A stretch of 56,972 nt of DNA, from the NCBI GenBank assembly GCA_022072025.1, contig JAJVIP010000007.1:213281-270252 (forward strand), read 5' to 3'. A program made the translations under genes and the position numbers. Position 1 is the first letter of the stretch, and each line of letters opens with the position of its first letter. Below the pieces are notes generated by a model, which saw only the letters and a list, made by a program, of their open reading frames with translations, did no database searches and had not been told where the DNA came from. This document shows positions 40,030 through 43,112 of the stretch, in pieces. Source of the stretch: Elusimicrobiota bacterium. Lineage in GTDB: Bacteria > Elusimicrobiota > Elusimicrobia > F11.

Positions 40030-40950
40030 ATGGAAAGAAACGTCGTTATTATTGGAGGCGGACCCGCCGGATACACGGCCGCTATTTACACCGGCCGCGC
40101 GAATTTAAAACCGTTGGTATTGGCGGGTTATTCCGCGGGCGGACAACTCATGACCACAACGGATGTGGAGAATTTCCCCGGCTTTCCTGAAGGCGTGATG
40201 GGTCCAGATCTCATGGAGAATATGCGCAAACAGGCCGAACGGTTCGGCGCAGAAATTTTATTCAAGGACGTCACTAAAGTGGACCTTTCGAAACACCCCT
40301 TCAAAGTGACTTACGAAGACATCACCGTTGAGGCCAAAGCCCTCATCATCTCCACAGGAGCCGGCCCCAAAAAATTGGGCATCCCTTCGGAACAAACGCT
40401 GTGGGGTAAAGGCGTCACCAGTTGCGCTACCTGCGACGGCGCTTTTTACAAAGGGAAAGAAGTGGCCGTCATCGGCGGCGGAGACTCCGCCATGGAAGAA
40501 GCCAATTTTCTCACCCGGTTCGCCAACAAGGTAACCGTTGTCCACCGCCGAGAAGAGTTCCGCGCCTCCAAAATTATGGAAGACCGGGCCCGCAACAACC
40601 CCAAGATATCTTGGGCTCTCAATAAAACCATCGAGGAAGTGATCGGTCCCAATAAAGTGACAGGCCTCAAACTTAAAGACACCAAAACGGGATCTTTTTC
40701 CGAACTCAAAGTGGATGGTTTGTTCCTTGCCATCGGGCACATCCCGAACTCAAGCCTGTTTAAAGGCGTTATCAAAATGGATGAGGAAGGTTATATTCTC
40801 GTTGATTCCAAAACCCAAACGAACATTCCCGGCGTCTTCGCTTGTGGTGACGTTGTGGACCGCACCTTCCGCCAAGCCGTCACCGCCGCCGGCAGCGGCT
40901 GCGCCTCCGCCATCAGCGCCGAACGATACTTGGAATCCCTGGGTCATTAA
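40030..40950 (+). CDS. trxB: Thioredoxin reductase
   Basis: NADPH-dependent flavoenzyme that reduces thioredoxin. 306 residues, with AGGAGG 9 bases before ATG 40030. FAD site [21 protein letters not shown] at the start, redox-active CATCDG near residue 135, NADPH site [17 protein letters not shown] near 150, and [25 protein letters not shown] near the end. Length and domain order are normal. It is transcribed away from mnmG across a 140-base spacer and is followed by a long repeat-rich spacer. Confidence 0.97.
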
Positions 40951-40960
40951 AATCTTCTTT

Positions 40961-41122
40961 AGGATTTCGTGCTTCGTCATTAGTCATTCGTCATTTAAAT
41001 CCTAATCAATTGTTTGAAGTTTGGTCATTCGAACCTTTGAGTATTCATTAGGATTTAGTGCTTAGGATTTAGAAATTAGGATTTTAATGACCAAGCACGA
41101 ATGACGAAGCTCTAAATCCTAA
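40961..41122. repeat. Clustered TTAGGATTT repeats with long imperfect inverted arms
   Basis: The block begins just after trxB and holds several TTAGGATTT / AAATCCTAA units in both orientations. Between them are variants of TGCTTCGTCATT and its complement (AATGACGAAGC, CACGAATGAC). The outer arms are imperfect inverted copies, so a long hairpin of about 160 bases can form. A short related fragment (TTTAGGATTTAGAAATTAGGATT) is at 42437-42459. This part of the 592-base gap 40951-41542 has no coding frame. Confidence 0.75.
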
Positions 41123-41228
41123 TGAAATTACAATTTCCCAATTCTTCATATGTGATCTAAGTTACATCACAACTCCACTTCATTTCTCGCTACGAATCTC
41201 AATCACAAACTTGTCATTTGAAATTCAC

Positions 41229-41257
41229 TTGACTTCTCCGACGGTGGGGTTTACTCT
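41229..41257 (+). promoter_or_regulatory. Sigma70-type promoter for the leader RNA and Fe-S carrier genes
   Basis: TTGACT at 41229-41234 and TACTCT at 41252-41257 are spaced by 17 bases, the optimal distance. The -35 matches consensus at five of six positions; the -10 is weaker. Transcription would start near 41264. A structured region and an intrinsic terminator follow before the first gene at 41543. Confidence 0.5.
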
Positions 41258-41263
41258 GGGCCT

Positions 41264-41433
41264 AGCAGTAAAACAGAATGGTTCTTTAAAATAAATGAAA
41301 AATTTTGGGAGGAATGTTGGGCGAGGTCACCCTCACCGAGCGTGGGTCACCAACAATTAAAATCCCCCACATCCTCCCATCTTTAAAACACAGCCCCCGT
41401 CCGCCAGGTTCTTTGGCAGACGGGGGCTTTTTT
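41264..41433 (+). ncRNA. Candidate structured leader RNA or small RNA ending in an intrinsic terminator
   Basis: No coding frame. TGGGAGGAATGTTGGG (41306-41321) pairs with CCCCCACATCCTCCCA (41364-41379) over about 14 pairs with small bulges. Inside, GTTGG/CCAAC and ACCC-CAC/GTGGGT give further helices around a GAGC-containing loop. A terminator hairpin follows directly. With the promoter upstream this forms either a self-contained sRNA or a terminator-type regulatory leader for the Fe-S carrier genes. I see no match to riboswitch classes I know, and the free ends do not pair as in 6S RNA. Class unknown. Confidence 0.45.
41393..41433 (+). terminator. Strong Rho-independent terminator upstream of the Fe-S carrier gene
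   Basis: GCCCCCGTC (41393-41401) pairs with GACGGGGGC (41419-41427), extended by GCCA/TGGC inside after one mismatch. Six T residues follow (41428-41433). It lies about 110 bases before the start of the first Fe-S carrier gene and 440 bases after trxB. It therefore either ends a small RNA or acts as an attenuator. Confidence 0.85.
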
Positions 41434-41542
41434 ATGAAGAACCCCGGGGCCTTGGGTCCAAGGGGTCTTGATCATAGACGGGGAACCAGCAGAAAAATAG
41501 GGTAGAATCAACCCTGATTTTCCGACGATGGAGGAGGAACCC

Positions 41543-41869
41543 ATGAGTGTCACATTAACAGACAGAGCCGTATCCAAAATTAAAGAATTTTATAGCCAAG
41601 ACCCCGCGCTGGCAGGCAAGTCCCTGCGCGTGTTCGTCGAAGCGGGAGGTTGTTCCGGTTATTCCTATGGCTTCAAATTTGATGATTCCAAATTCGATGA
41701 CACTGAACTTCCTTACGATGGATTCAAATTGGTGATTGATCCCAACGCTGGAAAACTCATTCAAGGGTCCACGATTGATTACAAAGAAGATTTCGGATCC
41801 GAAGGTTTCGCCATCCAAAATCCCAACGCCAAAAAGTCTTGCGGTTGCGGCAACTCCTTCGAGGTTTGA
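41543..41869 (+). CDS. A-type iron-sulfur cluster carrier (IscA/ErpA family)
   Basis: 108 residues from ATG 41543, which has GGAGGAGG upstream; an in-frame ATG at 41528 lies before that site and is not needed. MSVTLTDRAVSKIKEFY is the usual start. The three cluster-binding Cys are in EAGGCSGYSYGFKF and SCGCGNSFEV. The chain is complete. It holds and passes Fe-S clusters to target enzymes; several in this window need one (QueG, RlmN). A second A-type carrier follows at once in the +1 frame. Confidence 0.93.
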   Translation: MSVTLTDRAVSKIKEFYSQDPALAGKSLRVFVEAGGCSGYSYGFKFDDSKFDDTELPYDGFKLVIDPNAGKLIQGSTIDYKEDFGSEGFAIQNPNAKKSCGCGNSFEV

Positions 41870-41879
41870 TACGCAATAC

Positions 41880-42203
41880 CTGACCTTAACCGAACGAGCC
41901 GCCAACAAGGCCAAACAATTGCTGGAAAAAACAGGCAAACCCGGCGCGGCGCTGCGGCTGCGCGTGATCTCCGGCGGATGCTCCGGCATGGAATACAAAA
42001 TTGAGCCCGATTGGGATCCGCCCACCCCCAAAGACACTGTGGTTGAAAGCCAAGGCATCAAGGTTTATTTGGATTCCAAAGGTTTGCTCTATATGGCGGG
42101 TTCTGAAATGGACTACGTTTCCTCGCTGATGGGCGCTGGATTTAAAATCAAAAACCCCCAAGCCGTCGCAGAATGTTCTTGCGGTCAATCTTTTACCGTC
42201 TAA
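41880..42203 (+). CDS. Second A-type iron-sulfur cluster carrier, start codon unclear
   Basis: About 107 residues. The domain is complete: TLTERAANKAKQLLEKTG, then VISGGCSGMEYKIEP, SEMDYVSSLMGAGFKIKNPQA and AECSCGQSFTV, with the three ligand Cys. No ATG, GTG or TTG lies at the expected start. The first codon matching the family's N-terminus is CTG at 41880, 10 bases after the stop of the first carrier. Alternatives are a +1 slip at GTT-TGA (41864-41869) giving a fused two-domain protein, or a sequencing error. The frame stays open back to 41736 inside the first gene. Confidence 0.8.
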   Translation: MTLTERAANKAKQLLEKTGKPGAALRLRVISGGCSGMEYKIEPDWDPPTPKDTVVESQGIKVYLDSKGLLYMAGSEMDYVSSLMGAGFKIKNPQAVAECSCGQSFTV

Positions 42204-42442
42204 TGGAAAAAATTACCTTGGATTTAAATGACCTGGCTTCAGGCAAAGTGGAATTGGCCAGCTTTCAACAAAAAGTGACCACGCTCGATGTGACCCTCTA
42301 CAAAGACAAACATGTTCAACTGGTGGGTTGCGCTCCAACGTGGGCGCATTTGCTTGTGGCGGGAAAACTATTTCCGGTGGTGGGCGCCCTCGACTTCTTA
42401 ATTGATGATGGAAAAGAGGGAAAGCCGGTCCAGATTCTTTAG
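42203..42442 (+). CDS. Small hypothetical protein
   Basis: 79 residues from ATG 42203, which shares its A with the stop of the second Fe-S carrier (TAATG), so translation is coupled. A 30-base longer frame starts inside the carrier gene. I do not recognise the family. The sequence alternates strand and helix, with a conserved-looking core VQLVGCAPTWAHLLVAGKLF and an acidic FLIDDGKEGKPVQIL tail. One Cys is present. It converges with rpe, with a TTAGGATTT repeat fragment between them. Confidence 0.65.
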   Translation: MEKITLDLNDLASGKVELASFQQKVTTLDVTLYKDKHVQLVGCAPTWAHLLVAGKLFPVVGALDFLIDDGKEGKPVQIL

Positions 42443-42464
42443 GATTTAGAAATTAGGATTTTTA

Positions 42465-43112
42465 TTAGAGGCTTTTGAGTGCTTGAACCGCTTTCACCGG
42501 GTCGGGGGAATTAAAAACTGAATTTCCTGCCACAAGAACCTGAGCGCCTGCTTCTATACATTGCGCGCCTGTTACCGCATCAATTCCACCATCGACTTCA
42601 ATTTTGCAGGACACATGGGTCAATTTTATGGCGGCGGCAATCTCGCGAATCTTGGGAATCATCTCCGCCATAAAGGATTGCCCGCCAAATCCAGGTTCGA
42701 CCGTCATAATTAAAACAACATTCAAGTCCCCCAGATAGGGAATGACTGCCGAGGCGGGCGTCCCGGGTTTAATGGAGATGCCCGGTTTGACGCCGAGCCG
42801 TTTTATTTCGCTGATCACCGCACCGGGGTTTTCTACCGCTTCAATGTGAAACGTCAATCCCCACGCCCCCGCTTTGGCAAATGGTTCAGCATATTTGAGT
42901 GGATCTGTGATCATCAAATGAACATCCAAAGGAAGGTGGGTGTGTTTTTTTAATGATTTGACAACCACCGGTCCGATCGTGAGATTGGGGACAAAGTGCC
43001 CATCCATCACATCCACATGTAACCAATCAGCGCCGGCAGACTCCATCAATTTGGCTTCCTCCGCCAACCGAGCAAAATCCGCTGATAAAATGGAAGGCGC
43101 CACCAAGCTCAT
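42465..43112 (-). CDS. rpe: Ribulose-phosphate 3-epimerase
   Basis: Interconverts ribulose-5-phosphate and xylulose-5-phosphate. 215 residues. APSILSADFARLAEEAKLME at the start, DWLHVDVMDGHFVPNLTIGP with metal and catalytic Asp, LDVHLMITDP, VLIMTVEPGFGGQSF, and CKIEVDGGID with the second Asp. All active-site motifs are intact. It is the last gene of the long ATP synthase operon, and its start overlaps the PASTA gene's stop by 4 bases. Confidence 0.96.
   Translation of the reverse strand: MSLVAPSILSADFARLAEEAKLMESAGADWLHVDVMDGHFVPNLTIGPVVVKSLKKHTHLPLDVHLMITDPLKYAEPFAKAGAWGLTFHIEAVENPGAVISEIKRLGVKPGISIKPGTPASAVIPYLGDLNVVLIMTVEPGFGGQSFMAEMIPKIREIAAAIKLTHVSCKIEVDGGIDAVTGAQCIEAGAQVLVAGNSVFNSPDPVKAVQALKSL

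What the first reader, a model, noticed from the sequence alone, without database searches (positions are those of the whole stretch)
41229..41542. Terminator-type leader or small RNA upstream of the Fe-S carrier genes
A 17-spaced promoter, a nested multi-helix region (41306-41379) and a strong intrinsic terminator (41393-41433) lie in order in front of the Fe-S carrier operon. The arrangement fits a riboswitch or attenuator that gates Fe-S carrier expression, or a self-contained sRNA. It matches no RNA class I recognise.
Basis: partly seen in the sequence, partly recalled or inferred. Interest (0 to 1): 0.58.

Follow-up and report, generated by a model that had tools for sequence, protein, structure and literature searches.

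The report
A new stand-alone small RNA gene
The finding is real, but it is a free-standing small RNA gene kept next to a thioredoxin reductase gene in one little-known bacterial family, not a switch for the iron-sulfur genes that happen to follow it here; its job is still unknown.

Summary
The observed parts are real: -35 TTGACT 41229-41234 with a weak -10, a stable 72-74 nt hairpin (41306-41379) and an intrinsic terminator (41393-41433). Two relatives of the same bacterial family, in other genera, carry the RNA (83-87% identity where it aligns; 34-35 of 36 core bases identical between any two, while trxB fourfold sites are about 49% identical). All three copies have promoter, boxA-like leader motif, hairpin and a 3' terminator-type hairpin, just downstream of trxB and upstream of convergent rpe.

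The Fe-S link fails. In G002 (99% complete) convergent rpe follows directly; in G001 DUF4160/DUF2442 genes follow. No IscA-type relative was found in the three other family genomes. It is best read as a self-contained sRNA of about 170-215 nt, not a riboswitch or attenuator.

No Rfam family matches. A covariance model finds it in 3 of 340 genomes of the phylum, all in this family. It is not recognisable as 6S or SRP RNA. Invariance on both strands of the hairpin suggests recognition by a protein (inferred). Covariation support is thin: 1 compensatory pair among 3 sequences. A new, lineage-restricted sRNA of a known general kind, function unknown.

The parts
40030..40950 (+). trxB (thioredoxin-disulfide reductase), the constant upstream neighbour
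   Evidence: TIGR01292 422 bits over cut-off 343; trxB precedes the RNA in G000 and G002, and in G001, whose contig begins inside the trxB end
41206..41228 (+). conserved upstream promoter region, TTGTCA..GAAATTC.C type
   Evidence: TTGTCA-N4-GAAATTC-N-CTTGACTT in all three copies; exact GAAATTCNCTTGACTT occurs only at the RNA in G000, G001 and G002
41229..41257 (+). sigma70-type promoter: -35 TTGACT, 17-nt spacer, weak -10 TACTCT
   Evidence: same layout in G001 and G002
41264..41433 (+). inferred sRNA transcript, about 170 nt (start inferred from the -10, end from the terminator)
   Evidence: inference; corresponding stretches 219 nt in G002 and 215 nt in G001
41281..41291 (+). boxA-like leader motif GTTCTTTAAAA
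   Evidence: matches boxA consensus GYTCTTTAANA quoted in PMC5725501; the rRNA leader of the same genome has GCTCTTTGACA; G001 GTTCTTTGAAA, G002 GATCTTTAAAA
41307..41378 (+). conserved irregular hairpin: P1 (GGGAGGA.UG..GGG / CCC..CA.UCCUCCC) and P2 (GGU.C.ACCC 41325-41332 with GGGU.C.ACC 41344-41351; loop 41333-41343), with an A-rich 3' internal loop
   Evidence: alifold consensus -27.9 kcal/mol against -13.5 for column shuffles, 0 of 300 as low; pair counts
41319..41354 (+). near-invariant 36-nt core GGGCGAGGTCACCCNNACCGAGCGTGGGTCACCAAC
   Evidence: 34-35 of 36 identical between any two of the three copies
41393..41433 (+). intrinsic terminator of the sRNA
   Evidence: a strong 3' hairpin also in G002 (followed by T7) and G001 (poor T tract)
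41543..42442 (+). variable cargo, not part of the RNA unit: two A-type Fe-S carrier genes (IscA/ErpA-like) and a 79-aa ORF
   Evidence: PF01521/TIGR00049 on both; no match in G001, G002, G003
42465..43112 (-). rpe (ribulose-phosphate epimerase, name recalled from the sequence), the constant convergent gene beyond the cargo
   Evidence: ORF; same orientation downstream of the RNA in G002 and about 5.5 kb on in G001

Best explanation
This is a stand-alone small RNA gene. RNA polymerase starts at a sigma70-type promoter (41229-41257), passes a boxA-like motif, transcribes a 72-nt irregular hairpin and stops at the intrinsic terminator near 41433, giving an RNA of about 170 nt. The hairpin is the working part and acts in trans. 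Because both strands of the inner helix and its loops are nearly invariant, the most likely mode is recognition of the hairpin by a protein; base pairing with target mRNAs comes second. Shown here: conservation of the unit, its promoter layout and its 3' hairpin in three genera; independence from the downstream genes; no match in the rest of the phylum's held genomes. Inferred: that it is transcribed, its ends, use of the boxA-like motif, and the protein-binding mode.
For: Homologs at E 4e-25 and 3e-20 in two other genera of the family; core 34-35 of 36 identical against 49% (G000-G002) at trxB fourfold sites. Promoter with the same 17-nt spacing and a terminator-type hairpin in each copy. Fold z -3.2 to -3.95 in each of the three; consensus fold beats 300 of 300 column shuffles. 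Three different downstream contexts with trxB upstream and convergent rpe beyond. No IscA relative in 3 of 4 family genomes. Reading frames through the core are broken by 1-2 nt indels right after it, against a peptide.
Against: No expression data. The -10 is weak in all three (TACTCT, TACCTT, TACTAC). Only three sequences: 1 of 22 pairs has a compensatory change, which 176 of 500 shuffles reach. The best fold of the G000 sequence alone is a three-way shape 4.8 kcal/mol better than the consensus rod. The G001 3' hairpin lacks a good T tract. Nothing directly shows a protein partner.
Confidence: 0.72

Rival explanations
1. Cis-acting riboswitch or attenuator gating the Fe-S carrier genes.
For: Structured region then terminator about 110 nt before the Fe-S start codon; no separate promoter listed between them on the + strand.
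Against: The same unit exists with no Fe-S genes behind it: convergent rpe in G002, DUF4160/DUF2442 in G001. No IscA relative in G001, G002 or G003. The terminator stem shares no pairing with the hairpin in the best folds.
Confidence: 0.06
2. Trans-acting antisense sRNA that pairs with mRNAs, for instance through its C-rich strand (CCCCAC.NCCUCCC, complementary to Shine-Dalgarno sequences) or the A-rich loop.
For: CCUCCC strand conserved in all three. Own promoter and terminator, the usual make-up of such sRNAs (general knowledge).
Against: The C-rich strand is paired in P1 in all three folds. The most conserved part is paired on both sides, not an open seed. No target search could be run on the genome.
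Confidence: 0.3
3. A strongly diverged 6S RNA (RNA-polymerase regulator) of this lineage.
For: Size near 170-215 nt; no 6S found in the own genome and none over cut-off in 147 class genomes, so the class has an unseen one or none.
Against: The Rfam 6S model gives nothing at the RNA even at E 10. The 5' and 3' ends do not pair into the closing stem of 6S, and the 3' end is a terminator hairpin.
Confidence: 0.05
4. A conserved DNA element, such as a protein binding site with near-direct repeats GCGAGGTCACC/GCGTGGGTCACC or an integration site, rather than an RNA.
For: Cargo differs beyond it in three genomes; in G000 a perfect 23-bp direct repeat encloses RNA plus cargo.
Against: Placement between a conserved promoter and a terminator-type hairpin; good RNA folds in all three.
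Confidence: 0.08
5. Only the terminator of trxB or of the converging rpe transcript.
For: The terminator stem can work from both strands; G002 has converging genes there.
Against: Does not explain the conserved promoter, leader motif and core, which lie about 40-165 nt before the terminator and are better conserved than it.
Confidence: 0.04

Closest known systems
Bacterial intergenic stand-alone sRNAs (own promoter, intrinsic terminator)
   Same: Layout, size, independence of neighbours
   Different: No sequence or model match to a described family; found only in one family of a poorly studied phylum
boxA antitermination leaders (rRNA; suhB leader in E. coli, PMC5725501)
   Same: Leader motif GTTCTTTAAAA fits the published GYTCTTTAANA; own rRNA leader has GCTCTTTGACA
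   Different: Precedes a short RNA with its own terminator, not a long rRNA operon or an mRNA; G002 deviates at one consensus base; NusB/NusE binding untested
6S RNA (RF00013)
   Same: Length
   Different: No model hit; ends do not pair; terminator hairpin at 3' end
Alphaproteobacterial ar14 sRNA (RF02344)
   Same: The only plus-strand entry of the lax Rfam list; a CCUCCC stretch and the terminator fall in register
   Different: 15.9 bits against a gathering score of 58.8, E 0.87, with many stem pairs broken: chance level

Membership tests
Cis-regulatory riboswitch/attenuator of Fe-S genes | Lies upstream of the regulated gene in relatives too | tested here: not met
   Convergent rpe in G002, DUF4160/DUF2442 in G001, no IscA relative in G001-G003
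Cis-regulatory riboswitch/attenuator of Fe-S genes | Member of a described riboswitch or leader family | tested here: not met
   0 of 4227 Rfam families at gathering score; nothing relevant at E up to 10
Stand-alone intergenic sRNA | Own promoter and intrinsic terminator conserved with the RNA | tested here: met
   TTGACT-N17-TAC in 3 of 3; 3' hairpin in 3 of 3, with a good T tract in 2 of 3. Sequence evidence only
Stand-alone intergenic sRNA | Short transcript detected | not testable with these tools
   No expression data at hand
Stand-alone intergenic sRNA | Structure supported by compensatory changes | tested here: inconclusive
   1 of 22 pairs changed on both sides; 176 of 500 shuffles reach that
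6S RNA (RF00013) | Match to the covariance model | tested here: not met
6S RNA (RF00013) | 5' and 3' ends pair into a closing stem around a central bubble | tested here: not met
   folds
Bacterial small SRP RNA (RF00169) | Model match and GGAA-capped domain IV helix (motif recalled) | tested here: not met
   no hit at the RNA nor in the own genome; no GGAA loop in the consensus hairpin
boxA (NusB/NusE) site | Match to consensus in the transcribed leader | tested here: inconclusive
   G000 matches GYTCTTTAANA; G001 has G at the eighth base, as the own rRNA does; G002 one mismatch. The looser GNTCTTTRAM occurs 5 times on the + strand and 0 on the - strand of the 57-kb window
boxA (NusB/NusE) site | Binding of NusB/NusE, antitermination | not testable with these tools
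   none

The most novel reading that the evidence does not exclude
A lineage-specific sRNA that carries a functional boxA, so that its synthesis is coupled to the Nus factors used for rRNA, or so that it draws NusB/S10 off rRNA transcription, with the invariant hairpin binding a partner protein: an RNA reporter or decoy of ribosomal RNA synthesis.
Probability: 0.08. Interest if true: 0.65.

Novelty: new member of a known kind. Interest (0 to 1): 0.36.

Why it matters
If it is expressed, this is a new RNA family in a phylum for which my searches found no sRNA paper, with a hairpin under unusually strong sequence constraint. It also warns that a gene next to a structured RNA need not be its target: here the Fe-S genes are variable cargo, and the constant neighbours are trxB and rpe.

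Tried and rejected
Known RNA classes: none at gathering threshold in the window; lax search of the locus gave only chance-level matches, four of five on the minus strand of the terminator. 6S: absent from the own genome; 0 of 147 class genomes over cut-off, two weak sub-threshold hits. Small SRP RNA: none in the own genome.

Wider homologs: covariance model R1 over all 235 class genomes searched gave 14 genomes at E <= 0.5, 3 strong (G000, G001, G002); the other 11 genomes scored at most 22.8 bits. Of 13 weak match rows I read three (L043, L047, L056); none has the core. Over 340 phylum genomes, 5 at E <= 0.05, the same 3 strong. Viral contigs: exact core pattern, 0. Plasmids: 0. The trxB-downstream approach over 41 genomes (30 loci kept and scanned) gave only G000 and G002; the contig of G003 ends about 100 bases after trxB, so absence there says nothing.

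rRNA mimicry (an apparent likeness to 5S rRNA, recalled): local alignment to the own rRNA operon is within shuffles, 49 of 200 and 194 of 200 as high. Coding: frames through the core are broken by indels between relatives. An earlier hairpin structure without the GGG/CCC pairs was evaluated and was less stable than the best fold. A broad TTCTTTRAAAA scan of the own genome was no more frequent than its reversed control, 26 against 35, so it is uninformative.

Full report
What is there. The sequence shows, in order on the plus strand, TTGACT (41229-41234), 17 bases, TACTCT (41252-41257), a leader with GTTCTTTAAAA (41281-41291), a 72-74 nt foldable stretch (41306-41379) and a GC-rich hairpin followed by six T (41393-41433). 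The -10 is weak, and the consensus scan did not list this promoter. The foldable stretch is more stable than every one of 200 shuffles (z -3.95), and the whole inferred RNA likewise (z -5.1; that figure includes the terminator).

Homologs. A nucleotide search of 60 relatives found two strong matches beyond the own genome: G002 (83% over 107 query bases, E 4e-25) and G001 (87% over 83, E 3e-20), each in another genus of the same family. 22 of 60 genomes had some match at E <= 0.1; the rest are short matches at E >= 2.7e-4, which I take as chance. G001 shows two copies, but its contig is a perfect palindrome in all the parts compared (7111 of 7111 and 18890 of 18890 positions), an assembly artefact, so I count one. 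A covariance model from the three found nothing else convincing in 235 class genomes or 340 phylum genomes. The fourth family member, G003, has its trxB contig end about 100 bases after the gene and gives no match elsewhere.

Conservation. The 36-nt core is 34-35 of 36 identical between any two copies, while trxB fourfold sites between G000 and G002 are 49% identical. Flanking promoter, leader motif and P1 are conserved; the bases between them mostly are not. The three 3' hairpins differ in sequence (G001 and G002 resemble each other) but each is strong; G002 ends in seven T, G001 has only a poor T tract. Frames through the core are interrupted by indels right after it, and the core keeps its third-codon positions as strictly as the others, so it is not a peptide gene.

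Fold. The alifold consensus is one irregular hairpin: an outer P1 with an inner GGG/CCC extension, an A-rich 3' internal loop, and an inner P2 whose arms GGUCACCC and GGGUCACC pair around a C.C mismatch. It beats 300 of 300 column shuffles, but with nearly identical rows this mostly restates single-sequence stability. Only one of 22 pairs shows a compensatory change (A-U to C-G in G001), which 176 of 500 shuffles reach. G000 alone prefers a three-way shape by 4.8 kcal/mol. P1 is therefore well supported; the inner architecture is likely but not proved.

Context. trxB lies upstream in all three, and rpe and a PASTA-type gene converge from beyond. Between RNA and rpe the cargo differs: none in G002; two A-type Fe-S carrier genes and a 79-aa ORF in G000; DUF4160, DUF2442, a pentapeptide-repeat-like protein and more in G001. 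A search with the first Fe-S protein finds both window genes (the second at 37% identity) and nothing in G001 (71% complete), G002 (99%) or G003 (85%). A more diverged carrier could be missed, but the RNA cannot depend on these genes.

Leader motif. GTTCTTTAAAA matches the boxA consensus GYTCTTTAANA given in passages I read of PMC5725501. The rRNA leader of the same genome carries GCTCTTTGACA about 95 bases after its own TTGACT. G001 has GTTCTTTGAAA; G002 GATCTTTAAAA deviates at one base. It sits 22-34 bases after the -10. The motif is conserved between poorly alignable flanks, so it is under constraint; that Nus factors bind it is a guess.

How it most likely works. I commit to a free-standing sRNA acting in trans through the hairpin (0.72 for the whole statement; within it protein recognition is somewhat more likely than antisense pairing, because the invariant bases are paired on both sides). 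Transcription, ends, partner and targets are all inferred.

Where it comes from. One genome of the same class is a single contig of 1,643,562 bases (list), which I recall as the size of Elusimicrobium minutum; together with the many 1.4-1.6 Mb relatives this points to Elusimicrobiota. This is recall, not a test.

Literature. Full-text searches for Elusimicrobia with noncoding RNA and riboswitch and Elusimicrobiota with small RNA and intergenic found 0 papers. A broader search listed bacterial RNA-discovery papers, none of the eight shown naming Elusimicrobia (listing only). For boxA with sRNA terms 4 papers were listed; I read passages of one.

Verdict. Observation confirmed; the Fe-S interpretation rejected; the sRNA interpretation supported. 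A new lineage-restricted sRNA family of a known general kind, of moderate interest.

Noticed in passing
window 41063-41085 and 42440-42462: Perfect 23-bp direct repeat enclosing the RNA, both Fe-S genes and the 79-aa ORF; 0 expected by chance. AGGATTTAG motifs also sit inside the 23S rRNA gene of the same genome (L125 5256-5319), so it may be a dispersed AT-rich repeat.
   Followed up: partly
window 40951-41160: Spacer between trxB and the RNA promoter with an inverted pair of CTAAATCCTAAT and other repeated AT-rich words.
   Followed up: partly
window 41543-42203: Two adjacent A-type Fe-S carrier genes with no relative found in the three other family genomes, hence likely gained here (or lost there).
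   Followed up: partly
L125 3494-6599: 23S rRNA gene of 3106 bases against a 2925-position model; probable insertion carrying the AT-rich repeat.
   Followed up: no
G001 contig C42 (L034, L035, L122, L123): 57,110-base contig, a perfect inverted palindrome wherever compared; assembly artefact.
   Followed up: yes
L120 (G016:C95:133-201) and class-wide: No 6S RNA over Rfam cut-off in 147 genomes of the class; a partial 34-bit hit in G016 may be a real diverged copy.
   Followed up: no
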